A stretch of 64,000 nucleotides of DNA. Source: Anaerolineae bacterium. Its GTDB lineage: Bacteria > Chloroflexota > Anaerolineae > Aggregatilineales > Phototrophicaceae. The stretch lies in assembly GCA_023382675.1 (NCBI GenBank), contig JAHDWN010000019.1, positions 51,245 through 115,244 of the forward strand. The letters run 5' to 3'. Positions 20,261-33,476 of this stretch are shown one piece after another. Under the pieces are notes generated by a model, which saw nothing but the letters and a program-made list of their open reading frames with translations, was not told where the DNA came from and ran no database searches. Positions within the stretch are counted from its first letter, which is position 1; each line of letters starts with the position of its first letter. Made by a program: the position numbers and the translations under genes.

Positions 20261-20373
20261 GCAATCTCACGCTCGCGGACACGCCCTGGACGGCCGATCT
20301 CGTTGAAAACACCTCGCCTTTCGCTTAGAATGTCTGGCCCGTTCTGCCGCACGTCGAGCGATGAGGTGTGTGG

Positions 20374-23049
20374 ATGACAGACGTCTTCATCTCCTACTCG
20401 CGCAAAGACGTAGACTTTGTGCGCCGCCTGTTTGACGCGTTCGAGCGCGCCAGTCTGAGTTCTTGGATCGATTTCGATGACATTCCCTACTCGGTCGATT
20501 GGATGCTGGAGATCGAGAAGGGCATCGACGCGTCGGATGCGTTCGTGTTCATCATCAGCCCCGATTCGGTCGCATCTCGTGTCTGCAATCTGGAGCTGGC
20601 GTACGCGCGCCAGAATAGTAAGCGCATCATCCCGGTCGTCCGCCGCGATGTCGATGCCCAGGCCATCGAACCCGTGTGGCGGCAGCAGGACTGGGGAGAG
20701 CAAGCGCGCGAAAACTGGACGTATCTGCGCCGGTTGAACTGGCTGTTTGCGCGTGAAAGTGACGATTTCACGCAGGCGTTTCAAGCGCTGGTTGAGATCG
20801 CACAGCAAGACCCGGAACATGTCCGCGCGCACACACGGCTGCTGACTCGTGCGCGCGAGTGGGATGTTCATCAGCGTGAGACCAGCTACTTGCTCAGCGG
20901 CGAGGATTTGAAAGCGGCGGAAAACTGGCTGGTGACGGCGGCAATCCTCGACCCACAGCCGACGCCGCTGCAGGTGGCCTATGTCCAGACGAGCCGCCAG
21001 CGAGAAACTCGCCGTACGCGCAACCTGCTGATCGGTGTTTCTGTTGCGCTCGTGGTCACGGTAGCGTTGGCGGTGCTTTCTTTTGGGCTGTTCCAGCGCT
21101 CAGAGACCAACCGTGTGCTGGCGGAGAACAACGAAGCCACGGCCGTCTATCAGGGCACGATTTCGGAGGCACTGCGCCTGTCCGCTCAAGCGGAACTGGA
21201 GGCGAGCGGCGCGTTTCCGGATCGTGGCGTGTTGCTGGCGCTTGACGTGCTTGAGCATTATCCGTACGTCTGGCAGGCGGAGCGCGCGCTGGCAACAGCC
21301 GTCCAGAGCACGCGACTGCGCTACCTGATCGACGACCCTGGGTTCTCCATCCACGGCCTGTCCGCGCAGAATCAATATCTGTCTGCGCTCGGGGGTACGG
21401 GAATCGAGGAACGCGAACGCCCATGCCTGCCACCCGTGCCCTATTCTAATACAATAGACGGCTTGCCGATGGTCGCGTTTCATATCTGGGCGCTGGAGGT
21501 AAGGCAGATCATCGAGAATTGGACGGGCTGCGTACTCCTGTGGTCGCCAACGAATGCCGCTCGTGTGGCGCTGGTCGATCCCACGACGACGACCATCTAC
21601 GATCTTCGTAACGATGCGCCCCGGCAGAACATACCCGGTTATGCGGTCGCCTGGTCACCTTCCGGCCAGCAGTTAGCGCTGCGCGAGGGCGCTCAGCTGC
21701 ATATCTGGGAGATTGAAGCGGGGCGGAGGCACTTCACCATCACGGGGCAAGATCCGCTCTGGTCGCCCGATGAACGCCGCATCCTGACTCTGGACAACCG
21801 CAGTCTATGGGATGCAAATACGGGCGCGCATTTGCTCACGCTGGAGATGCCGCCTTCGCCCACCGGAATGGGCGAGGAAGGCTTCATGGCCGCCACCTGG
21901 TCGCCGGATAGCCAGCAGCTCCTGGCTATCCAGCTCTATCGGGCGGCCACGTTCAATGCCTCGACCGGCGAACCACTCGAAGTCGACGCGGTCGGTCAGG
22001 ATCAGCATCCCGGCTACGTGGCATCGTGGATGGGTGATCATCCGCTGATCGCCTACACCTCCGGCACGACCGGGCTGGTCGACGTCATGCTCGATGATCT
22101 GAGCGGCGCTGATCCGGCACTCTTATCGCAGATGGCGCTAGATCCGCAGTGGTCGGTCAATGGCGAGCTTGCCTCCAACACGATTCAGAACACGGTGCGC
22201 GTGGAGGCGAGCGGCGTTGACGGCACCTTCTATGAGCTTCAACTCTATGGCGGCCCATATCCACTGACCTACGGGTTGAGCACCGTATGGTCAACGAGCA
22301 ACTCCTACCTCGCCGCAAACGTGAACACCGCGCCTATGCCGCTCGCCGAGATCAATGCGCCGATTCATGTGTGGGATGCGGGCAACCTGGCGACATCCCT
22401 GCCACAGGATATCAATTTGACACCGCGTGAGGTGCCGTATCTGGCGACCGATGTCGCTTCGCCCGATGGCAGCCTGACTTTCCACTACGATCCGTCGACC
22501 GAGGCGACCAGAGCTTCGATCACGATTCACGACGCGGGCGACGACCGACTGCTGCGAACGCTGCCCATTGATGCGGATTTCGGTGGGTTGATCATCGAAT
22601 GGTCGCCGGATGGGCGTTTCATCTCAGCACACGGGGTCGCCGGCTTTTCCAGTCTACCGTCGCGCTCGTGGGTTTGGGACGTGCGCACTGGCGAGGAGGT
22701 CCTCAGTTTCACCAATACTTATCGCATACAATGGGCGCCGCACACCAGTCGTCTTCTGGTTGCGCGGGGCAGCCGCGCGGAGATTTGGGATGTCGAACGC
22801 CGGATTCTGCTCTACGAAACGGACGCGCCCACAAGCGTTGTCGAATGGAGCGAAGATGGCAGCAGCCTGGTCTTTATGACTCACGCATGGGTCGTGCGCG
22901 ACGGCGTCGGCGGCAACGAGTATACCGGTGTCACGCTGCCAGTCTGGGAAACGCTGGACGATCTGATTGCTTATGCGCGTGAATGCTGTGTCGTGCGCAG
23001 TCTGACTGCCGAAGAACGGCGCCAATTTGGACTGCCTGCGTTAGAGTAA
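20374..23049 (+). CDS. TIR domain - TM helix - WD40-like beta-propeller protein
   Basis: TDVFISYSRKDVDFVRRLF...SWIDFDDIP...FVFIISPDSVASRVCNLELAYA; linker HTRLLTRAREW; TM LLIGVSVALVVTVALAVLSFGLF; propeller repeats such as IIEWSPDGRFISAHG. Confidence 0.88.
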   Translation: MTDVFISYSRKDVDFVRRLFDAFERASLSSWIDFDDIPYSVDWMLEIEKGIDASDAFVFIISPDSVASRVCNLELAYARQNSKRIIPVVRRDVDAQAIEPVWRQQDWGEQARENWTYLRRLNWLFARESDDFTQAFQALVEIAQQDPEHVRAHTRLLTRAREWDVHQRETSYLLSGEDLKAAENWLVTAAILDPQPTPLQVAYVQTSRQRETRRTRNLLIGVSVALVVTVALAVLSFGLFQRSETNRVLAENNEATAVYQGTISEALRLSAQAELEASGAFPDRGVLLALDVLEHYPYVWQAERALATAVQSTRLRYLIDDPGFSIHGLSAQNQYLSALGGTGIEERERPCLPPVPYSNTIDGLPMVAFHIWALEVRQIIENWTGCVLLWSPTNAARVALVDPTTTTIYDLRNDAPRQNIPGYAVAWSPSGQQLALREGAQLHIWEIEAGRRHFTITGQDPLWSPDERRILTLDNRSLWDANTGAHLLTLEMPPSPTGMGEEGFMAATWSPDSQQLLAIQLYRAATFNASTGEPLEVDAVGQDQHPGYVASWMGDHPLIAYTSGTTGLVDVMLDDLSGADPALLSQMALDPQWSVNGELASNTIQNTVRVEASGVDGTFYELQLYGGPYPLTYGLSTVWSTSNSYLAANVNTAPMPLAEINAPIHVWDAGNLATSLPQDINLTPREVPYLATDVASPDGSLTFHYDPSTEATRASITIHDAGDDRLLRTLPIDADFGGLIIEWSPDGRFISAHGVAGFSSLPSRSWVWDVRTGEEVLSFTNTYRIQWAPHTSRLLVARGSRAEIWDVERRILLYETDAPTSVVEWSEDGSSLVFMTHAWVVRDGVGGNEYTGVTLPVWETLDDLIAYARECCVVRSLTAEERRQFGLPALE

Positions 23050-23071
23050 GTGACCGTCCGTTAGTTTGAGC

Positions 23072-23217
23072 TTGCGTGCTACTGACGAAGGGGTACGATG
23101 GGGCCGATTGGGGGCTGGCCCAGGTTGTTGCCTGGTGGATGCTGCAAGCAAGTTCGACCGGTCTGCCTGACAACCTTCAAGGGCTTGACCTCCGCGCGCT
23201 ATCTTGAACCGCAATAG
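23072..23217 (+). pseudogene. Degraded GNAT acetyltransferase relic, similar to 19757..20260
   Basis: In shifting frames: LRATDEGVRW..., GAGPGCCLVDAASKFDR, VCLTTFKGLTSARYLEPQ*; compare ADDEGARLRW, GLGLGKRLMDAA, VYLTTFKGLTAARHLYEK in the intact gene. Confidence 0.7.
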
Positions 23218-23250
23218 CCCACGCGCGCTTCAGCCGGTACAATCCGGCGC

Positions 23251-24108
23251 ATGTTTACACAAGACGTTCTAACACAGGCGCTCGCGCCGCGCGCGGTGCG
23301 CTATCTGCCGCAGACCGGCAGCACCAACGACGATGCGCTCGCCTGGCTCAACGGCGGCGCAGCCGATGGCGCGGTCGTCATCGCTGGTGAACAGGTGCGT
23401 GGTCGTGGGCGTATGGGGCGCGCCTGGCACGCGCCGCCCGGCACCGCCCTGCTGCTCTCCATCGTGCTGCGCCCGCATCTGCAACACCTGCCACAGTTGA
23501 CCATGCTCGGCGCGCTGGCCGTCTGCGAACTGGCCGAGGCCTACGGCATCGCCGCCGTGGACATCAAATGGCCGAACGATGTGCGCATCGGCGGGCGCAA
23601 GCTCAGCGGCGTACTGCCAGAGGCCGCCTGGGCAGGCGACCGCCTGCTCGGCGCTGTCCTCGGCATCGGCCTTAACCTCAGCGTCGATTTCACCGGCACA
23701 CCGTTCGCGTCCACCGCCATCAGCCTGGCGACCGCGTTACGATCTCCCGAAGTATCCGCCTCATCTGCGCAGGACTCATCGAGCAAGGTACTGCCTGCCG
23801 AAGTCCCCTCACCGTCTACGGAGAGGGAATTTAGGGATGAGGTGGGTGAGGTGTCTGCTCTATCCCCACTCGCTGTCCTCACACGCCTGCTCACTCTCTA
23901 TGATCGCTGGCGGGCGCAGCTTGGACAGCCCGCGCTCTATCACGCATGGCGACAGCGGCTGGCGCTCGGCGGTCACGTCCGTGTCACCGCGCCGGAGGGT
24001 GTGCTGGAAGGCGTCGCTGAGGGGGTGACGCCGGATGGGGCGCTGCTCCTGCGCATGGCCGACGGCACGTTGCGTCATATCCTTGCAGGGGATGTGTTCG
24101 AGGTCTGA
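23251..24108 (+). CDS. birA: Biotin--[acetyl-CoA-carboxylase] ligase
   Basis: GSTNDDALAWL, GEQVRGRGRMGRAWHAPPGTALLLSIVLRP, DIKWPNDVRIGGRKLSGVLPE. Confidence 0.93.
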   Translation: MFTQDVLTQALAPRAVRYLPQTGSTNDDALAWLNGGAADGAVVIAGEQVRGRGRMGRAWHAPPGTALLLSIVLRPHLQHLPQLTMLGALAVCELAEAYGIAAVDIKWPNDVRIGGRKLSGVLPEAAWAGDRLLGAVLGIGLNLSVDFTGTPFASTAISLATALRSPEVSASSAQDSSSKVLPAEVPSPSTEREFRDEVGEVSALSPLAVLTRLLTLYDRWRAQLGQPALYHAWRQRLALGGHVRVTAPEGVLEGVAEGVTPDGALLLRMADGTLRHILAGDVFEV

Positions 24109-24225
24109 TCCCTGCGCCAGCGAAGCGACGCTAAGCCTCCGCTTCGCCCCCGACGACAGTCACCCTTGGTATGCACTCGCTGTCTGTGGTTCAATTAGAG
24201 TGTTGATTGACGATGGAACGACATT

Positions 24226-25602
24226 ATGGGAATCCGTCTGGATTGGGAAATTGAGAGCGAACGCGAGCGGATGCAGGAAGTCGGGGAAGACCCGGAGGCC
24301 GCTCGGCGGCGACGCCGCGCCTTGCGCCGCATCATCCTTTTTACTGCCTTCCTCATCATGATCGGCGCGTGCGTGGTCGGCCTGGTGCTGCTGCGCTTGC
24401 AGCAGGTCGATGAAATCTTCCGCCAGAACCTGCTCGACACAGTCGAAAACGAGGTGGCCGCGCTGCGGGTTGGCGACCGCACTGCCTACAATAATATCCA
24501 GCGCAGCGACAGCGAGGCGTGGATACAAAGCCAGCAGGTGCTCTACGATGATTATCAGACGCTCAAACAGCAGCCCAACCTGATCCTCAGCGGGCACGCG
24601 CTCGATGTCGAAATCGATGGTGCGCGCGGGCGGGTGTTGGTCGAAGAGATCCTCAACGGCGTCCAGTATGCGCGCGTCTGGTTCTACTGGCGCTTTGACG
24701 ATGGCTGGCGTCATGTCCCGCCGGATTACACCTTCTGGGGTGAGCAGCGTTTGCTCGAAAGCGACCAGATGGCGATCCGCTACTGGGCGGTTGATGAGCC
24801 ATTCGCGCAGGCGCTGGCTTCGACCCTGCCTGCCTGGCTCAATGCCGGTTGTGCCGCGCTCATCTGCCCAACGCTGCCGCAGCTCGTGATCGATATTCTG
24901 CCAGACGAAACGGTCGAGATGGGCTGGCTGCCGGATGAACCCTGGCATCTGCGCGTTGCCTCGCCATTTCTCAAACCGGTGCGGATGGATCAGGTCTGGC
25001 AGCCGGAAAGTCGCCTGGCTATGGCCGGATTGTTCACCGAACAGCTCGTGTCTGCTGCCACCAATGGTGTCGGGCCGGTCTATCCCGCCGACGCCTACTA
25101 TCTGCACCAGGTCATCACCTCGTGGTTGACCAAGCGCTTCAGCGGCGTCGAGATCAACACCTACAGCCTGGATAGCTTCGCCGGACGCTACGGAGATGCG
25201 GCGGTCGGGCGTCTGTTGGCGGCGCTCACGCCGGACTCGGGCGTCGCGGCCATGGCCGAGGCCGCAGGCGTCGCCTCGGTGGCCGATCTCGAAATCGACT
25301 GGCGCGATATTCTCACCTGGCGCTTGACGCTTGAGCAGGAATTGATCGCCGCTCGCGACGATGCGCACTTCCTGCAACTCTACGACTTGACCGATCCTGC
25401 CGTGAGCGATGCCGCGCTGGCTCGCTTTGAGTCGGTCGGGCGTGGCGGGCGTCTGCTCGTCTCAGAGGTGACGCGCGGCGCGGATTCGGTGGGCAATCCG
25501 GCGCTGTTTGCGCGCGCCATTGTCGTTGGCACCGACGGCTCAACGCGCGAGGAGCAGGTTGTTTTTCGCCTGGTCAATGGCGACTGGAAGCGCGCCAGCT
25601 AG
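24226..25602 (+). CDS. Membrane-anchored protein of unknown function
   Basis: 458 aa; single TM (IILFTAFLIMIGACVVGLVLL) and large extracytoplasmic part; no motif recognised. Confidence 0.65.
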   Translation: MGIRLDWEIESERERMQEVGEDPEAARRRRRALRRIILFTAFLIMIGACVVGLVLLRLQQVDEIFRQNLLDTVENEVAALRVGDRTAYNNIQRSDSEAWIQSQQVLYDDYQTLKQQPNLILSGHALDVEIDGARGRVLVEEILNGVQYARVWFYWRFDDGWRHVPPDYTFWGEQRLLESDQMAIRYWAVDEPFAQALASTLPAWLNAGCAALICPTLPQLVIDILPDETVEMGWLPDEPWHLRVASPFLKPVRMDQVWQPESRLAMAGLFTEQLVSAATNGVGPVYPADAYYLHQVITSWLTKRFSGVEINTYSLDSFAGRYGDAAVGRLLAALTPDSGVAAMAEAAGVASVADLEIDWRDILTWRLTLEQELIAARDDAHFLQLYDLTDPAVSDAALARFESVGRGGRLLVSEVTRGADSVGNPALFARAIVVGTDGSTREEQVVFRLVNGDWKRAS

Positions 25603-25617
25603 GTCAGACAAGAGTAG

Positions 25618-25679
25618 TGATGAGTAACGAGTGATGCGTGATGAGCCATACAGTAAGTCTGCATGACTCATCACTTTTT
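25618..25679. repeat. Heptanucleotide tract and overlapping hairpin with T-tail
   Basis: TGATGAG TAACGAG TGATGCG TGATGAG; GTGATGAG (25638-25645) pairs with CTCATCAC (25667-25674) followed by TTTTTA. Confidence 0.75.
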
Positions 25680-25711
25680 ACGCTGCTTGTGGGCGAAACC
25701 CGCGTACTCTG

Positions 25712-27058
25712 TCAGCCCATGGGGATGACGCAGCGCCCGGCGCTCGCGCTGCACGAGGCCACCGTCTGGCCGCCGCGCTCCACCCGGAAATCGCTGCGCC
25801 AGATCGCGCGCGAGGCTTCGAAGAAGGTCGTGCTCGTGAAGCCGCAGCTTACCGTCGGCGTCGTAATCGAACGGTCGATGGTGATGAACAGGCAGTCACG
25901 CGCGCCGAACGATTGAATCGTCCCGCGAATGAACTGTGCCTGCAACGACGCGACGCGAATGCTGGTCGTGCCATTGGTCAGCACCAGGCCGCCCAGATTG
26001 ATCCCGGCCCGGTCGGCGAACAAGGTCAGCGTGGACGCGGTATAAGCGAGTGTCACGCTCGGCCCGGCGGGCGCGCTTGACGATCCGCCGCTAGTAGCGG
26101 TCGGCGGTACGCTGGTTGCCTGCGGCGGCACGGTGTTCACTGCTAACACGGACGTAGGGTTAGGCGCGGGTGTATTCGTCGCCAGTGTCGCCCCGCCGCT
26201 GCTGGTTGGGCGCGGCGTGGGCGTGTTGGTCGGTGCAGCGACGACGATTGCGCCGCCCCAGGCATCGGCGTATTGCGGCAGCAGCACATCCGCCGGGCGC
26301 AGGCTGACTTCGGTCACGGCCTCGGCAGTGCCGGCCTGATAGATAACAAACAGCGAATCGCCGCTGGTGTCCGGCAGCGGCAGTGTCGCCGTCCAGGGCT
26401 GCCAATCGCCCAGTGGACGCCCCTGACTGTCGAACAGCCGCACCTGATCTGCGTTTCTGATCCAGTCGCCTCGGCCACGTGGATACGTCTCGTTGGAAAG
26501 ATACAGGGTGTCACCGCGTGGGTCGGCCAGCGCTGGCAGCACGTTTGGCTGGCTGGCGATCACGATCAGATAAACAAAGCCTAACCGGTAGGGCAGTACG
26601 GCAGCGCCAACTTCGCGATACCAGCCGTTCGTAACCGTCCGATTGTGGATGTCCGAGCCGCGCCAGAAATTGATCGCGCCCTGCACGTTCGGGCGCGCCG
26701 CCGCGATCTCGCTCAGGACGAGTTGGTCCGTCTGCCCATAGACCGGCCAGCCGTACTGTGGGTAAAGCGCGCGCGTCCGCGGATCTTCACCGTTGCGCCC
26801 TGTGTGAATCTCCGCGCCGCTCGGAATCTGGGGCTGCTCCAGGATGTACCGCGCCTGATCGAGCGCCATCTTTTCCAGGATCGGGTTCGGGCGCATCGGC
26901 GCTAACCCCAGGCCGATGCGCCACTCGTTCAGCGCCGCGACCACAGCGCGCGCTTCGTCGGCGTTTGATGTCGATTGCGGTTGTGCGGTCGTCGTCAAGG
27001 GAACGACTGTCACTAACAAGGCAAGCAAAAACGCGCAGAAAAGCCAGCGGCGCATCAT
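25712..27058 (-). CDS. Secreted CAP/SCP-domain protein with Thr/Pro linker
   Basis: Signal peptide; VVAALNEWRIGLGLAPMRPNPILEKMALDQARYIL ... CAP-like; PTNTPTPRPTSSGG linker. Confidence 0.65.
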   Translation of the reverse strand: MMRRWLFCAFLLALLVTVVPLTTTAQPQSTSNADEARAVVAALNEWRIGLGLAPMRPNPILEKMALDQARYILEQPQIPSGAEIHTGRNGEDPRTRALYPQYGWPVYGQTDQLVLSEIAAARPNVQGAINFWRGSDIHNRTVTNGWYREVGAAVLPYRLGFVYLIVIASQPNVLPALADPRGDTLYLSNETYPRGRGDWIRNADQVRLFDSQGRPLGDWQPWTATLPLPDTSGDSLFVIYQAGTAEAVTEVSLRPADVLLPQYADAWGGAIVVAAPTNTPTPRPTSSGGATLATNTPAPNPTSVLAVNTVPPQATSVPPTATSGGSSSAPAGPSVTLAYTASTLTLFADRAGINLGGLVLTNGTTSIRVASLQAQFIRGTIQSFGARDCLFITIDRSITTPTVSCGFTSTTFFEASRAIWRSDFRVERGGQTVASCSASAGRCVIPMG

Positions 27059-27201
27059 TTTTCACTTTCTGAACGACATAACCTTTACATAGCATAGCGT
27101 ATTATTGCGATTATTGTGCAATTCAATGAACTGGCGCATAATCTCTGACGAACAGCATGCAGCGAAATTCGGACGGCCATTCGTAAAGGAGCATTCGCCA
27201 G

Positions 27202-27885
27202 GTGGATTTTGTCCGCGCACTTCGCATCGTCTTTGACGATCCTCAGTGGGTGAGCAAGCTGGCCGTTGCGGCGGTCATCACCGGGGTTTCCATTCTGCTG
27301 ACGCCGGTGCTGATCGGCCTGGCGGGCTGGGCGATCCTGCTCGGCTACCAACTGGCGTTGATCGCCAATCTGCGCGCTGGGGTGCAGTACCCGCTGCCGC
27401 GCTGGATCGACCTCAGCGAATACTTCAACAACGGCTCACAGGCGCTGACCGCGCTCGTCATTTATTTGCTGCCGCTGATTCTGTTTGGCTGTTGCATCGC
27501 CACCCTGTCGTTCTTCAGCGATGGCAATTTGAGCAGCGGGGTTGTGCTGGGCATCGTCTGTGTTGCGCCCTTCCTGCTCGTCTATCTCCTGATCGCGCTG
27601 CTCCTGCATACACTGGGTATGGGGCGCTTCCTGGACGACCCACGCCTGGGCGTCTTTTTCGACGTTAGCGGGCTGCTGCGGCTGCTGCGCGCGCGCAGTG
27701 ACATCACCCTGCGCTATCTGCTCAATGTGATCATTCTCGGCGTCATTTTTGGCGCGTTTAACGGTATTCCCTGTCTGGGCACGCTGGTCCATCTGGGGCT
27801 TCAGTGGCCGGTCAGCGGCGCACTGGCCGGGCTGTTCATCCACGAGATGCTCGACACACCCAGGCGCAAAGCGAAGCCGTCTTGA
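27202..27885 (+). CDS. DUF4013-like membrane protein
   Basis: MDFVRALRIVFDDPQWVSKLAVAAVITG...LPRWIDLSEYFNNG; GTG start. Confidence 0.7.
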   Translation: MDFVRALRIVFDDPQWVSKLAVAAVITGVSILLTPVLIGLAGWAILLGYQLALIANLRAGVQYPLPRWIDLSEYFNNGSQALTALVIYLLPLILFGCCIATLSFFSDGNLSSGVVLGIVCVAPFLLVYLLIALLLHTLGMGRFLDDPRLGVFFDVSGLLRLLRARSDITLRYLLNVIILGVIFGAFNGIPCLGTLVHLGLQWPVSGALAGLFIHEMLDTPRRKAKPS

Positions 27886-27899
27886 GCGCGGCCTGTGCC

Positions 27900-27927
27900 T
27901 TGACGCTGCCCCCGCCTTTGCTATAAT
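27900..27927 (+). promoter_or_regulatory. tRNA-Lys promoter
   Basis: TTGACG (27900-27905), 16-nt spacer, TATAAT (27922-27927). Confidence 0.7.
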
Positions 27928-27939
27928 GCGAGGGTAGTC

Positions 27940-28012
27940 GGCTCCGTAGCTCAATTGGCAGAGCAGTTGACTCTTAATCAATAGGTTGCAGGTTCGAGTC
28001 CTGCCGGAGTCA
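27940..28012 (+). tRNA. tRNA-Lys (anticodon CTT)
   Basis: Cloverleaf: GGCTCCG TA GCTC AATTGGCA GAGC A GTTGA CTCTTAA TCAAT ... GCAGG TTCGAGT CCTGC CGGAGTC A. Confidence 0.95.
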
Positions 28013-28020
28013 TAAAATAA

Positions 28021-28046
28021 GCCCCACAACGCGTGGGGCTTTTTTG
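28021..28046 (+). terminator. Rho-independent terminator
   Basis: GCCCCAC-AACGC-GTGGGGC-TTTTTT. Confidence 0.9.
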
Positions 28047-28101
28047 TTTGAAGCGCTATCTATTCAAGGCGTAAACGCCGGGCACAAATACCAGCAGGTC
28101 T

Positions 28102-28788
28102 TTATCCGACGGGTTCGCCGACTGCGTTCGCCGGGACCCAGATCGGCTGCGCCTGGCAGGCAATCCAGACTTTGGCGAAGTCACCGCTGAACTCCGAAAT
28201 ATGCCACGTCCCAGCGGGAAGATTGAAGTTCACCTGTGTCGCCAGATCGGCGTCATAGAATGCCGGCGCGCCAGCCGGGATCGAATACACCACCGAATTG
28301 GCGGGCAGAGGATACGTGCAGGACGCGCCTGACCCCAAATACACATTGCCCGGCCCCGTGATCGTGATGTTATAGGACAGTCCAGTCTGGGCGAACGTAT
28401 CGTCAATCACGGCGACGAAGTACTGCGTCCCGGCGGTCAGCGCCACGGTGAAATTGATGGGGTTTGTGTTGCTGGCAGCGATGCAGTTCGAAGCGGGCAG
28501 TGCCGGATCGAAGCTGCCTTGATAGACGTAGACAGCGCTTGTGGTGCCAGGCTCAGTTACGGTGTAGACACCATCAGCATCGACGGTGAACGCATAAGAC
28601 GCATACAGTACTGCAAAAGCAGTATACCCGCCTGTGCAGTTTGGCGTGGAGATGATCGCGACCTGTGGCTCTTGCTGGCCACCCGGAGTGAGCGTGCCCG
28701 AAACGCTGGCGCTGCCAGCATATACAACCGTCGCCGCAATGGCGAAGATCACTACAAGGACGATACTAACGAGTGCAATCTTCCTCAT
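28102..28788 (-). CDS. Secreted protein, PPC-like domain
   Basis: MRKIALVSIVLVVIFAIAATVVYAGSASVSGTL signal; ...VYVYQGSFDP...LTAGTQYFVAVIDD...YNITITG. Confidence 0.65.
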   Translation of the reverse strand: MRKIALVSIVLVVIFAIAATVVYAGSASVSGTLTPGGQQEPQVAIISTPNCTGGYTAFAVLYASYAFTVDADGVYTVTEPGTTSAVYVYQGSFDPALPASNCIAASNTNPINFTVALTAGTQYFVAVIDDTFAQTGLSYNITITGPGNVYLGSGASCTYPLPANSVVYSIPAGAPAFYDADLATQVNFNLPAGTWHISEFSGDFAKVWIACQAQPIWVPANAVGEPVG

Positions 28789-29060
28789 CAGACCTTCTCC
28801 TATGACAAGATATACGTTATGCGTCCGAACGCTATGTCCGATCCGTGATTCACAGTATATGCACGAAACCACGTAAGAAGATTGGTGAAGAATTCTCGTC
28901 AGAGTGTGAACGATCCACGTAATTCGAAGCCCAAAATCCGGACTGTCCCCCCAAAATACACCCCAGGTATACCGCCGACTACAACTTTAGGTGGAAGCGA
29001 TCAAACCTCGTTTCAGCGTATGCTGCTCACCGTGAAACAAAGTGCCTGAGAGGTGTATCC

Positions 29061-30293
29061 ATGGCTTTCAAGCCCCAAGTCTATATGAGGCTGGCGCTCG
29101 GCATCGCCGCGTTTGTGGTCGCCGCCGCCTGTTCGCTCTCGTTCGATCTGCCCGTGGGACGCGGTGATCCCGACCCGGCCACGTCAACGCCGTTTGTGCC
29201 CAACACGAGCACGCCCATCGTGCCGACGGCGACTCCAATCCCGCCGACGAGCACGAGCGTGGTCGTCGTACCGACCACCGTCGGGTGCAGCGTGCGCAGC
29301 GATTGGTTCAACTACGTCGTCGCGGCAGGTGACACACTTTCGCGAATTGCGCAGCGCACCGGCACGACCTCGGCGGTGCTGGCGCAGGCCAACTGTCTCG
29401 CCAACGCCAACGCGATCTATGCCGGTCAGGTGATCAAGGTGCCGCTGCTGCTGCCACCAACGACGCCACCTACGCTGCAGCCAGTGACGCCGACCTACTA
29501 CAGCCAGGGCATTCAGCCCTACGACGCCTGCATCGTCAATACGCGCGCCGGGACAGTTGCGCCGCTCTTTGCCCAGCCGAACGCCGCTGCAGCGCTGCCC
29601 GGCTATCTCGGCAACTGGGGCATCCGCCTGGGTGAGCAGAACGGCTTCCACCAGATCTCCATCACCCCACAGGGCATCGTCGCCTGGGTGCGCCTGAGCG
29701 ATACCTACGTCAGCGGCTTCTGTATCTACCCGCCGACGGAGACGTCGCTGCCTTACAAGCCGAATATCACGCAGGGTTCGGTCGTCGTCAGCTCGTTCGT
29801 CGATGGGCAGGCAGGGAACTATCGTCTGCGCACAGGGGAATCGGTCGTCCTGACCTGGGATGCCGCGCCCGCTGGCCTCATGAGCGCGACCTTCTATACC
29901 ATCGCTCAGGACGGCTCACGGATCGACCTCGGTGCGGACTATACGCCTGGGGATGGCCTGTCCATCCTATGGATCGTCCCGGCCAATCTCAACGCGCATC
30001 AGCTTCTGGTCGAAGGGCCGGGCCTGGGCGCGGCGAGTTTCGGCTTCGCCACCAGCTACCCGATCCGTGTCTATTCGCCGCCGCCGCCGTCCGAGACGTG
30101 CTACATCGAGCCGCTGCAGAACGTCAACGTCTACGACGACCCGGATTACAGCAGCGCCATCACCGACCTGCTGACGCCCGGCAACCGCTACCCGGTGATT
30201 GCGCGCACGTCCGACGGCTGGATCGGCATTGAAATCTCGCTCGGCTGGGTCGCGCCGAACGCGCCCGTCAGCTTCAGTGGCCCGTGCCCGTAG
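29061..30293 (+). CDS. LysM-domain secreted lipoprotein
   Basis: Lipobox VAAAC; VAAGDTLSRIAQRTGTTSAVLAQANCLANANAIYAGQVIKVP is LysM. Confidence 0.85.
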   Translation: MAFKPQVYMRLALGIAAFVVAAACSLSFDLPVGRGDPDPATSTPFVPNTSTPIVPTATPIPPTSTSVVVVPTTVGCSVRSDWFNYVVAAGDTLSRIAQRTGTTSAVLAQANCLANANAIYAGQVIKVPLLLPPTTPPTLQPVTPTYYSQGIQPYDACIVNTRAGTVAPLFAQPNAAAALPGYLGNWGIRLGEQNGFHQISITPQGIVAWVRLSDTYVSGFCIYPPTETSLPYKPNITQGSVVVSSFVDGQAGNYRLRTGESVVLTWDAAPAGLMSATFYTIAQDGSRIDLGADYTPGDGLSILWIVPANLNAHQLLVEGPGLGAASFGFATSYPIRVYSPPPPSETCYIEPLQNVNVYDDPDYSSAITDLLTPGNRYPVIARTSDGWIGIEISLGWVAPNAPVSFSGPCP

Positions 30294-30367
30294 TCCACGC
30301 TATGCACTGTCCGGGGCGAGATCATGCTTGCCCCGGACAGGTGATGAATTGCAAAGGATCGGTCATC

Positions 30368-30562
30368 ATGACACCGACTCAACGGATCGTTTGCCTGCTC
30401 GTGCTCTGGGGCGCTTTCGCCGCGGCCACGGTCTCTATGCTCAGTGACCTGCGCCTCGCCGATGGAACGATGATCCCTCTGGGGCTGGTGTTGAATGCCT
30501 GCGCGCTGACGGGCACGTGGCTGATCGTGCGCGCCCGTCATCTCGTGCCGCGAGATTGCTAG
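30368..30562 (+). CDS. Small two-TM membrane protein
   Basis: MTPTQRIVCLLVLWGAFAAATVSML...GLVLNACALTGTWLIVRARH. Confidence 0.5.
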   Translation: MTPTQRIVCLLVLWGAFAAATVSMLSDLRLADGTMIPLGLVLNACALTGTWLIVRARHLVPRDC

Positions 30563-30563
30563 C

Positions 30564-30583
30564 GGACGTGCCGTTGCACGTCC
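30564..30583. repeat. 8-bp stem hairpin with adjacent CCCTACG
   Basis: GGACGTGC-CGTT-GCACGTCC followed by CTACGA. Confidence 0.6.
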
Positions 30584-30605
30584 CTACGACCCTGTCACCT
30601 TTTCT

Positions 30606-33476
30606 TTAGCTGCACGGCTCCACGCCATACTGCACACGCTCGGCACACGTCAGTTCACGCAGATAACGCTCGTCGGCGATCCAGCGCTGGACGGCGGCGG
30701 GATCGAACGAGGCGCGCCAGAGGCCGACGCTGCCATCGCGCGAGGCGGTCAGCACGCCGGAGCCATCCAGGGCGAAAATGGCCTGGATGACGTCGTCGCT
30801 GTGCCCTTCCAGGCGCACCAACTCTTCCCAGTTGCCCATATCCCAGATGCGCGCGGTGTCGTCGTAGCTGGCCGAAATCAACTGCTGGCTGTCGGGACTG
30901 AAGCTCAGCCCGCGCACCAGATCGCTGTGCCCGATCAGCCGCCGGGTTTCCTGTGCCGATTCCATCTCCCAGACGACGATCAGGCCGTCTTCCGCGCCAG
31001 ACGCCATGCGGCGGCCATCCGGACTCAGCGCCAGCGTATAGATGGTGTGCTCGTGGACATTGGCGAAACGCTCCTGTACCTCACCGCTCTCCAGATTGAC
31101 CTCGGCGATGAAGCCCTGCCCGGCACGGCTGAGGTCGGCTCCGGCGTAGATGACGGCGCGTTCATCTGTGTTGAAGAGACCGGCTGCGACAACCGCAAGA
31201 TCGACCGTGTGCTGGAAAGCGACTTTGCCCGATGCCAGATGGTAAACCAGGATCTGCGAGCCGGTCTGGGCCGCGTCGACGGCGGTCACGAGCGCACGTG
31301 TACCATCCGCCGTATAGCTGACGGAGGTGATGATCGACGCATTCTCAACCGGGATTGTGCGGATGAGTTCGCCGGTCGTCAGATTCCATTGGCGCAGTGT
31401 GGCGTCGAAACCGCCGCTCAGGGCAGTTTGCTCGTCCGGGCTGACGGCGAGCGCCGCAATCGAGTCGGTGTGCCCGCTGAATTCGCGCACGACCTCACCG
31501 TCGTGCCACAGCAGCACGCGGGGGTCGGCTTCACCGCCTGCCGTTACGAAAGCGCCGTTGGCTAGCGGCACGACTTTCGACACCGATGCGCCCGGCGCGT
31601 AGCCGCGGACGAACCGCTCCAATGCGCCGCTGAAGACCTGCCAGCTGCGCGCCGTGCTGTCGAGCGAGCCGGTGTAGAGCAGGCGGCCATCCGGCGAGAA
31701 GACCACCGACTCCGAGCGTGCCCCATGACCAACGTAGGAAAAACGAGTCTTGCGCGTCGCCATGTCGGTGACGGTGACGCCCGAATCGTAAGCGGTGAAG
31801 CCCAGCCAGCGACCATCCGGGCTGATGGCGAGCGCGGGAACGCCCTGGTTGAGATCATCGATGCGCCAGGCCTCGTCGCGCGTGTCCACGGCGTAGGCGC
31901 GCATCCCGCTCTCGTTCAGGCCGACGAGCAGCTGGCTGCCATCGAGGGTAAAGGCAAGCGCCTCGACCGGTTCGCCGGACGCGGGCGTCCACGAGTCGAT
32001 CTGCTGGCCGGTCGCGACATCCCACAGGCTGACAGCGGCGTCACGTGCGCCGGTCGCCAGCAGCGCATCATCGGGGCTGAAGGCGACAGTGTCGATGGAA
32101 TCGCGGTGCGCCCGCAGGTCAATGCGTGCCTGGCCGGTGGACACATCGTACACGCGCAGAACGCCAGACGCGTAACCGACGGCCAGCAGCTGCCCATCCG
32201 AGCTATAAGCGAGTGACTGCGTAAGCGTGCCGGGTAGATCGATACGCCGTCGCTCGCGCCAGTGTTCGACATCCCAGAAGATGAGTGTGTTGCTGCCGAT
32301 GGCGGCGATGGTCGGGTCGTGTGGGTCGAAGGCGAGCGCATTAATAGCTGCCAGGTTCACACGCATGCCCTGGGCCTCTGCAAAGTCGCTGAATTGTTCC
32401 TGCTCCATGAGCGCGCCGCTGTCCGCATCCCACAGGGCGAGCGACCCGTCGACGCTGCCGGTCAGCAGGCGTGTCCCACTTGGGTCGAGCGCAATCGCGT
32501 TAACCCAATCCTGATGCACGCCGCCAAACAAGCGCCGCGCGCCGCGTGCATAGGCGGACTGCGCCAGGGTTGCGCGTGCCTGCGCCGGGGGATCGGTGAT
32601 CTCGTTGGCAGCGCTCGCCAGCGCTAAGGCCAGATCGCTGTTGTTCGCGCCGAGCGCCTGGCGCGCGCCGAAGGCCAACGCGAGGCTGCGCGCTTCGTCG
32701 GCGCGGCGCACGGCCAATCCTTCCGCTGCGACCGCCGTCGCTGCCTGCTGTGCCACCGCTGTCCCGCGCAGGTCGGAAAGCTGGCGCTGGGTCTCGGCCT
32801 CGTTGCGCTGGAGCAGCGCGATCACGGCCAGGACGAGCGCGACCGCTGCCGCCAGTGTGACCCCGGCCAGCAGCATCCGCGTGCGCGCGGTGGCGGCGCG
32901 GCGGCTGGCGAAGATGTACGCCTGCTGGAGCGCCGTCGGCTCCGGCACTTTGCCCGCGCTGGCGACGAGCCAGCTTTCCGCCGCCTGGAGATCCGCGCCG
33001 CGCAAGATGAGGCTGGTATCGCGCCCTCGGCCTTCCCATTCACGGGCGCGGACGAGCAGACGGGTGTGCTGGCGCACGTGATTGAGATCGGTATCGAGCG
33101 CGCTTATCAACGAGTCGAATGCGCCGTCGAAGTCGTCGTCGCTGCGCATGAACAGCCAGTTGTGACTCGCCAGCGCCTCGTGGACGCGCTGTGAGGCCGC
33201 CTCGCGCCGGACGATGGGGATCAGTCGCTTGTTGTGGGCGATGGCGTGTTCGAGTTCGTCACGGCACACCTCGGACGCAATCGAGTCCGGGCTGATGATG
33301 AAGACGAAGCTGTCTGCCGCCTCGATGCCGCGCTGGATTTCCTGCCACCACTGCGCCGTCAGCGGAATATCCTGCCAATCGACCCACGTTTCACGATTGC
33401 GCTGCGCCAGCGCCTCGTGCAGTTGGCGGACAAAGGCCTGATCTTCGCGCGCATACGAGATAAACACGTCCGCCAT
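30606..33476 (-). CDS. TIR domain - TM helix - WD40 beta-propeller protein (paralogue)
   Basis: MADVFISYAREDQAFVRQLHEAL...TWVDWQDIP...FVFIISPDSIASEVCRDELEHA; HTRLLVRAREWEGRGRDTSLILRGADLQAAESWL; canonical WD repeats (GHTDSIAALAVSPDEQTALSGGFDATLRQWNLTTGE). Confidence 0.92.
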   Translation of the reverse strand: MADVFISYAREDQAFVRQLHEALAQRNRETWVDWQDIPLTAQWWQEIQRGIEAADSFVFIISPDSIASEVCRDELEHAIAHNKRLIPIVRREAASQRVHEALASHNWLFMRSDDDFDGAFDSLISALDTDLNHVRQHTRLLVRAREWEGRGRDTSLILRGADLQAAESWLVASAGKVPEPTALQQAYIFASRRAATARTRMLLAGVTLAAAVALVLAVIALLQRNEAETQRQLSDLRGTAVAQQAATAVAAEGLAVRRADEARSLALAFGARQALGANNSDLALALASAANEITDPPAQARATLAQSAYARGARRLFGGVHQDWVNAIALDPSGTRLLTGSVDGSLALWDADSGALMEQEQFSDFAEAQGMRVNLAAINALAFDPHDPTIAAIGSNTLIFWDVEHWRERRRIDLPGTLTQSLAYSSDGQLLAVGYASGVLRVYDVSTGQARIDLRAHRDSIDTVAFSPDDALLATGARDAAVSLWDVATGQQIDSWTPASGEPVEALAFTLDGSQLLVGLNESGMRAYAVDTRDEAWRIDDLNQGVPALAISPDGRWLGFTAYDSGVTVTDMATRKTRFSYVGHGARSESVVFSPDGRLLYTGSLDSTARSWQVFSGALERFVRGYAPGASVSKVVPLANGAFVTAGGEADPRVLLWHDGEVVREFSGHTDSIAALAVSPDEQTALSGGFDATLRQWNLTTGELIRTIPVENASIITSVSYTADGTRALVTAVDAAQTGSQILVYHLASGKVAFQHTVDLAVVAAGLFNTDERAVIYAGADLSRAGQGFIAEVNLESGEVQERFANVHEHTIYTLALSPDGRRMASGAEDGLIVVWEMESAQETRRLIGHSDLVRGLSFSPDSQQLISASYDDTARIWDMGNWEELVRLEGHSDDVIQAIFALDGSGVLTASRDGSVGLWRASFDPAAVQRWIADERYLRELTCAERVQYGVEPCS

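What the first reader, a model, noticed from the sequence alone, without database searches (positions are those of the whole stretch)
20374..33476. Two divergent TIR-TM-WD40 paralogues about 7.5 kb apart, both keeping the putative NADase glutamate
Seen: both ORFs have the same order (TIR, conserved HTRLL.RAREW linker, one TM helix, beta-propeller) and both keep a Glu after the ISPDS..C motif (NLELAYA and RDELEHA). Known: in SARM1-type and bacterial TIR proteins, a Glu at the equivalent place is the catalytic residue for NAD cleavage. Inference: they are membrane-tethered TIR effectors sensing through a cytoplasmic or extracytoplasmic propeller, with no NTPase module. They lie on opposite strands and their propellers look very different (canonical WD in the second, diverged in the first), so they may sense different ligands.
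Basis: partly seen in the sequence, partly recalled or inferred. Interest (0 to 1): 0.65.

Follow-up and report, generated by a model that had tools for sequence, protein, structure and literature searches.

The report
Membrane-spanning bacterial TIR receptors with outside propellers
Two genes of a Chloroflexota bacterium encode proteins that most likely hold a TIR (immune-type NAD-cleaving) domain inside the cell and a beta-propeller sensor outside it, and they belong to a broad, apparently undescribed bacterial family of plug-and-play TIR receptors arranged across the membrane like animal Toll receptors.

Summary
Two genes (20374-23049 +, 30606-33476 -) encode TIR, a conserved HTRLL.RAREW linker, one TM helix, a helical stalk and a beta-propeller, and both keep the TIR glutamate. 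That Glu is present in 95/95 relatives and aligns with AbTir E208. They are two of about 16 TIR+linker proteins in a genome with 66 TIR places, and not recent duplicates. (1) The linker matches the segment that follows the NTPase in nSTAND1 proteins; kinase-nSTAND1 and DUF4062-nSTAND1 proteins share linker, TM, propeller and Cys tail. So this is a STAND chassis carrying TIR in place of the NTPase. (2) The propeller side is most likely outside the cytoplasm: net charge favours TIR-in in 89/92 (none reversed), and relatives carry CHASE2, SH3b or peptidase M23 in the same slot. (3) In orthologue pairs the propeller changes about 4-5 times faster (dN) than TIR. Best reading: single-pass TIR receptors with Toll-like topology, sensing outside and cleaving NAD inside. 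Not shown: NADase activity, ligand, any defence role; no conserved partner gene, no defence neighbours. The family is found mainly in Anaerolineae and filamentous Cyanobacteria, sometimes on plasmids.

The parts
20374..23049 (+). TIR receptor 1 (P0001, 891 aa from ATG; possible GTG start at 20368)
   Evidence: orthologue 72% identical in L160/L151
20374..20790 (+). TIR domain of receptor 1 (residues 1-139)
   Evidence: Pfam TIR_2 E 9e-23; AlphaFold pLDDT about 80-90
   Evidence: aligned with AbTir E208; 95/95 in the family
20812..21009 (+). HTRLL.RAREW linker (residues 147-212), nSTAND1-tail-like helical bundle
   Evidence: alignment A1; HMM match to nSTAND1 proteins
21025..21081 (+). single transmembrane helix (about residues 218-236), positive residues on the TIR side
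   Evidence: hydropathy; charge bias
21469..22887 (+). diverged beta-propeller region (about residues 366-838), predicted extracytoplasmic
   Evidence: AlphaFold strands and Foldseek to WD40 propellers; middle part low confidence
22984..23037 (+). Cys-containing C-terminal tail CCVVRSLTAEERRQFGLP
   Evidence: shared with L084, L087, L151
30606..33476 (-). TIR receptor 2 (P0002, 956 aa)
   Evidence: orthologue 75% identical in L062/L161
33105..33476 (-). TIR domain of receptor 2 (residues 1-124)
   Evidence: Pfam TIR_2 E 3e-27; AlphaFold
33255..33257 (-). putative catalytic Glu74 codon
   Evidence: aligned with AbTir E208; 95/95
32889..33086 (-). HTRLL.RAREW linker (residues 131-196)
32820..32876 (-). 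single transmembrane helix (about residues 201-219)
30714..32543 (-). WD40 ectodomain, about 14 blades read as two tandem 7-bladed propellers (residues 312-921)
   Evidence: Pfam; AlphaFold mean pLDDT 87.7; Foldseek 2ymu, Apaf-1, AIP1
30612..30653 (-). paired-Cys tail LTCAERVQYGVEPC
   Evidence: same motif class in 13/44 Chloroflexota TIR and 8/9 nSTAND1 proteins

Best explanation
Both proteins are single-pass membrane receptors. The TIR domain and the helical linker lie in the cytoplasm, one TM helix crosses the membrane, and an Ala-rich helical stalk carries a beta-propeller ectodomain (about 14 blades in the second, diverged in the first) outside, closed by a Cys-bearing tail. Ligand binding or clustering at the propeller would bring TIR domains together through stalk and linker, switching on NAD+ cleavage with Glu74 as the catalytic residue. 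The output, NAD+ loss or a cADPR-type signal, would stop or reprogram the cell. The chassis is shared with kinase-nSTAND1 and DUF4062-nSTAND1 receptors of the same bacteria, with TIR in place of the NTPase. Shown by computation: architecture, Glu conservation, linker homology, charge bias, exchangeable sensor slot, faster propeller evolution. Inferred: topology (strongly), NADase activity (moderately), activation by clustering, and the biological role.
For: Domain order and TM: (TM right after the linker in 92/95 proteins). Topology: net charge higher on the TIR side in 89/92, 3 ties, 0 reversed. Relatives carry in the same slot CHASE2 (E 1e-62 to 1e-64 in L120, L122, L127; 3e-27 in L123), SH3_3 (L086, L099, L102, L148) or peptidase M23 after a propeller (Agrobacterium plasmid protein L182, E 5e-21). 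Cys-bearing tail in 24/44 TIR and 9/9 nSTAND1 proteins while Cys is otherwise rare on that side. Glu 95/95, aligned with AbTir E208 and Cat1. nSTAND1 kinship: linker HMM hits all 9 nSTAND1 proteins between NTPase and TM, and P0002 aligns from linker to tail with L176/L177 and C29_41096 (E 1e-72 to 1e-79). Sensor/effector split: dN 0.05 in TIR against 0.21-0.26 in the propeller. Fold.
Against: No biochemical evidence. The Trp of the WxxxE motif is V/I/Y in this family, so activity could be low or absent. TM and topology rest on hydropathy, charge and homologous domains, not on a dedicated predictor or experiment; TPR-bearing relatives (L152, L154) carry a domain that can also be cytoplasmic. 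Two linker-bearing paralogues have no TM (C5_106451, C29_18482). WD40 propellers are best known from the cytoplasm. Ligand and output are unknown. Relatives were fetched with a query that included linker and TM, which inflates their co-occurrence (the C-terminal slot was not fixed by the query beyond the stalk).
Confidence: 0.62

Rival explanations
1. Same topology, but the TIR is not an enzyme here: it is a TIR-TIR interaction module that recruits other TIR proteins of the genome (66 TIR places), as in animal TLR signalling, so the receptors are sensors in a TIR adaptor network.
For: 66 TIR places in the genome and TIRs in all 121 genomes sampled from the order; TLR and MyD88 TIRs are also found by the profile; Trp of WxxxE not kept.
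Against: The Glu is invariant in 95/95 and the AbTir-essential S and D positions are 95/96 and 96/96; best-scoring solved TIR is Cat1, a CRISPR-associated TIR effector.
Confidence: 0.2
2. Cytoplasmic anti-phage effector of the Thoeris/SpbK type: the propeller is in the cytoplasm, binds a phage protein, and TIR kills the infected cell by NAD+ depletion; the TM only tethers it.
For: Many bacterial TIR proteins are abortive-infection NADases (SpbK PMC12847820; DUF4062 Swarozyc PMC13174449); family members also lie on plasmids.
Against: A single TM with strong TIR-in charge bias puts the C-terminus outside; the slot holds CHASE2, SH3b and M23 in relatives; neighbours are ordinary chromosomal genes; no partner gene in 78 loci.
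Confidence: 0.1
3. Envelope or cell-contact sensor with a regulatory rather than lethal output (cell-wall state, development or kin recognition in filamentous bacteria), using TIR-made cADPR-like messengers.
For: SH3b, M23 and FGE versions of the C-terminal part; stable inheritance with neighbours and whole-gene dN/dS of 0.17-0.24 between sister species; family concentrated in Anaerolineae and filamentous Cyanobacteria.
Against: No receptor for such messengers identified (STALD search silent, but its controls were silent too); a lethal output fits the sequence equally well.
Confidence: 0.3

Closest known systems
Animal Toll-like receptors (LRR-TM-TIR)
   Same: single-pass membrane receptor, repeat ectodomain outside (inferred here), TIR inside
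   Different: polarity reversed (TIR at the N-terminus), propeller instead of LRR, catalytic Glu kept; TLR2 TIR was found to lack NADase activity (as cited in PMC9153377)
Kinase-nSTAND1-TM-WD40 and DUF4062-nSTAND1-TM-WD40 proteins (Pfam PF20703)
   Same: post-NTPase linker, TM, stalk, WD40 ectodomain, Cys tail; same genomes
   Different: they carry a P-loop NTPase and kinase or DUF4062; the TIR proteins have only the linker end of that module
Bacterial TIR NADases: AbTir, Cat1, SpbK, Thoeris ThsB
   Same: TIR fold and catalytic-position Glu; Cat1 is the nearest solved relative by sequence
   Different: not described as single-pass receptors with an outside sensor; Thoeris needs a ThsA partner, none seen here; Trp of WxxxE not kept
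EACC2-type bacterial conflict proteins with constant effector and variable TM+CHASE2 C-terminus (PMC8195603)
   Same: constant intracellular module plus interchangeable C-terminal sensor that may be extracellular with TM helices
   Different: their constant part ends in a caspase domain and they are tied to TRADD-N/EAD systems; here it is TIR+linker and stand-alone genes
DUF4062 TIR-like NADases / TEP1 (Swarozyc, PMC13174449)
   Same: TIR-like NADase joined to NTPase and WD40; the genome has a DUF4062-like nSTAND1-TM-WD40 protein (L037)
   Different: P0001 and P0002 have a true TIR_2 domain, no NTPase and a TM

Membership tests
TIR-domain NADase (SARM1/AbTir type) | TIR fold | tested here: met
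   Pfam TIR_2 E 9e-23 and 3e-27; profile finds SARM1, AbTir, Cat1 in PDB
TIR-domain NADase (SARM1/AbTir type) | catalytic Glu in the alpha-C region | tested here: met
   E74 aligned with AbTir E208; 95/95 in the family
TIR-domain NADase (SARM1/AbTir type) | Trp of the WxxxE motif (most bacterial TIR NADases, PMC11374754) | tested here: not met
   position is V57, I19, Y13, W1 of 96 aligned TIRs; the Trp is dispensable in TcpC
TIR-domain NADase (SARM1/AbTir type) | NAD+ cleavage | not testable with these tools
   needs an enzyme assay
STAND NTPase receptor (nSTAND1) | P-loop NTPase domain | tested here: not met
   no NTPase match in P0001 or among the listed matches of P0002
STAND NTPase receptor (nSTAND1) | segment following the NTPase, before the TM | tested here: met
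   linker HMM hits 9/9 nSTAND1 proteins at that place
Toll-like receptor | single TM with ectodomain outside and TIR inside | tested here: met
   computational only:
Toll-like receptor | LRR ectodomain at the N-terminus, TIR at the C-terminus | tested here: not met
   WD40 ectodomain, TIR at the N-terminus
Thoeris (ThsB) | adjacent ThsA effector gene | tested here: not met
   neighbours are GNAT, BirA, LysM, AlkZ-like, DinB etc.; no recurrent partner in 78 loci; genome-wide STALD search inconclusive
Transmembrane one-component receptor with exchangeable sensor | constant TIR-linker-TM joined to known extracytoplasmic sensors | tested here: met
   CHASE2, SH3_3, M23 in relatives

The most novel reading that the evidence does not exclude
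Bacteria, mainly Anaerolineae and filamentous Cyanobacteria, possess a large modular family of TIR transmembrane receptors with Toll-like topology, built on the tail of an nSTAND module. A constant TIR-linker-TM output part is joined to interchangeable outside sensors (WD40 propellers, CHASE2, SH3b, M23, FGE-type, TPR) and cleaves NAD+ in answer to events at the cell surface.
Probability: 0.65. Interest if true: 0.78.

Novelty: new variant of a known kind. Interest (0 to 1): 0.6.

Why it matters
The bacterial TIR immune proteins studied so far are mostly cytoplasmic. A widespread family that places the sensor outside and the TIR inside would mean that bacteria evolved Toll-like receptor topology on their own, with an enzyme as output, and that NAD-cleaving responses can be set off by events at the envelope. 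The exchangeable sensor slot, including CHASE2, makes the idea testable in laboratory strains. The link to the nSTAND chassis shows how NTPase-dependent receptors and simple TIR receptors can interconvert.

Tried and rejected
Defence-island reading: rejected, neighbours are ordinary genes. Conserved operon partner: none; recurrent neighbours are generic, such as histidine kinases and ABC ATPases. ThsA-like partner by STALD: no hit, but the control genomes were silent as well, so inconclusive. Empty-site test in congeners: abandoned, because the flanking genes are themselves absent from, or strongly diverged in, most other congeners. Recent tandem duplication of the two genes: rejected by the tree. 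DNA-level repeat expansion of the two propellers: none, unlike paralogue L055. Phage-borne copies: none in INPHARED at tblastn sensitivity. First Cys-motif regex was too strict and was redone. Papers: no description of a TIR-TM-WD40 or TIR-CHASE2 receptor found in the open-access library; subscription papers are not covered.

Full report
WHAT WAS CHECKED. The two ORFs exist as described. P0001 is 20374-23049 (+), P0002 is 30606-33476 (-), 7.6 kb apart. Both have a TIR_2 domain, a linker with HTRLL.RAREW, one strongly hydrophobic 19-residue stretch right behind it, a helical stalk and a propeller region. The conserved glutamate is residue 74 in both.

THE GENOME. The window lies on contig C19 of a 6.4 Mb assembly that has 66 TIR_2 places. 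Its nearest held relative, G002, matches Anaerolineae bacterium SJ143 in contig length, so this is a Chloroflexota, class Anaerolineae. All 121 genomes sampled from the order have TIR domains (counts there are capped at 33 scored). Linker searches give 19 places in the own genome: 16 with TIR, 3 in nSTAND1 proteins.

THE CATALYTIC GLUTAMATE. In 95 family TIRs the Glu is invariant. The profile alignment to AbTir places it at E208, and S7 and D33 at S140 and D167; PMC11374754 reports that mutating each of these inhibits the NADase. The correspondence of chain numbers to AbTir numbers is my own arithmetic from D136/S140/D167/E208 in that paper. The Trp four residues before the Glu is not kept (V, I or Y). 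In AbTir its loss inhibits, in TcpC it does not. Activity is therefore likely but not certain.

THE LINKER. An HMM of the TIR-protein linker hits all nine nSTAND1 proteins tested, always between NTPase and TM. One of them (L178) was chosen by the nSTAND1 model and not by linker similarity. BLAST aligns P0002 from linker to tail with kinase-nSTAND1 proteins of congeners and with the own DUF4062-type protein (E down to 1e-79). nSTAND1 assignment by Pfam; by kinase start and Walker A motif. So the TIR receptors share the whole chassis and differ in the cytoplasmic part.

TOPOLOGY. Of 95 family proteins 92 have a TM directly after the linker; the others are one contig-truncated sequence and two own paralogues without TM. 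Net charge in the flank is higher on the TIR side in 89, equal in 3, lower in none. The domain after the TM is exchangeable: CHASE2 in four cyanobacterial proteins, SH3_3 in L086, L099, L102 and L148, peptidase M23 behind a propeller in a protein of an Agrobacterium plasmid, FGE-type in L006, TPR in L152 and L154. CHASE2, SH3b and M23 are extracytoplasmic domains by established knowledge. Cys is rarer on the propeller side, and 24 of 44 Chloroflexota TIR proteins and 9 of 9 nSTAND1 proteins have a conserved Cys-bearing tail, in most cases a pair that could form a disulfide; in P0001 the two Cys are adjacent. Together these argue for TIR inside, propeller outside. No dedicated topology predictor was available.

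STRUCTURE. AlphaFold of P0002 (mean pLDDT 87.7) shows TIR, a helical linker, a long TM/stalk helix and about 14 propeller blades, read here as two 7-bladed propellers; Foldseek finds 2ymu, Apaf-1 and AIP1. P0001 is modelled poorly in the propeller middle (mean pLDDT 60.5), yet its listed top matches are propeller-containing proteins.

EVOLUTION. In SJ143 the orthologue of P0002 has the same neighbours on both sides (AlkZ-like, LysM/SH3), and that of P0001 the same upstream neighbours, with a rearrangement downstream. In these pairs TIR dN is 0.05, propeller dN 0.21-0.26, with roughly similar dS, and dN/dS is below 1 everywhere (Nei-Gojobori counting with Jukes-Cantor correction, one pair per gene). 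This fits a fixed output and a faster-changing sensor, both under purifying selection. The tree separates the two proteins. Elsewhere the family lies mainly in Anaerolineae and filamentous Cyanobacteria with scattered members in other phyla and some plasmids; no phage record matched.

CONTEXT. Neighbours are a MmyB-type regulator, GNAT, biotin ligase, CAP, DUF4013, LysM/SH3, AlkZ-like and DinB genes. No partner gene recurs in 78 loci. PADLOC matches cover essentially only the TIR domain. A defence role is possible but not shown.

INTERPRETATION. The best-supported reading is a single-pass receptor that senses outside and uses a TIR NADase inside. Topology is well supported, catalysis is likely, trigger and output are open. 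I found no description of TIR-TM-WD40 or TIR-CHASE2 receptors in the searchable papers; the nearest concept is the constant-effector plus variable-sensor proteins of PMC8195603. Hence 'new variant of a known kind'.

LIMITS. Relatives were found with a query containing TIR, linker and TM, so that co-occurrence is partly selected, whereas the C-terminal slot was free. Shallow alignments for AlphaFold. Hydropathy-based TM calls. Open-access literature only.

Noticed in passing
own genome G000; order-wide: 66 TIR_2 places in one 6.4 Mb bacterial genome; all 121 genomes sampled from the order have TIR domains, several with 40-80 candidates.
   Followed up: partly
L055:2975-6280 (paralogue C24_86989) and L183:5001-8216 (Tolypothrix plasmid): TIR-TM proteins whose propellers are made of near-identical repeats (120-bp DNA unit, about 13 copies in L055), hinting at fast repeat turnover as in fungal HNWD receptors.
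   Followed up: partly
L006:693-2522 and L001:4774-6384: TIR-linker proteins ending in an FGE-sulfatase (formylglycine-generating enzyme) fold instead of a propeller, with TM (L006) and without (L001).
   Followed up: partly
L184:2693-5200 (Bernardetia plasmid): Three TIR-linker units in tandem followed by one TM helix and a coiled coil, showing that TIR plus linker is a repeatable unit.
   Followed up: no
L053:6077-7282: A 402-aa protein with TIR, linker and a second, unrelated TIR, without TM; closely followed by another TIR gene.
   Followed up: no
L182:3956-6889 (Agrobacterium tumefaciens plasmid pAtCG920): TIR-linker-TM-WD40 protein with a C-terminal M23 peptidoglycan peptidase domain, annotated only as a DD-metalloendopeptidase family protein, next to transposases.
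   Followed up: partly
L037:3895-8337: DUF4062-like domain joined to nSTAND1, TM and WD40 in the same genome, an architecture reminiscent of TEP1/NWD1 but with a TM (DUF4062 read from the sequence, not scanned).
   Followed up: no
window 29061-30293: LysM protein with a weak C-terminal SH3 match, tail-to-tail with receptor 2 and kept beside it in the sister species.
   Followed up: partly
L084, L099, L114, L146, between TM and propeller: Ala-rich helical stalks built of repeated units such as NAATATIAQGEA, of very different length between relatives.
   Followed up: no
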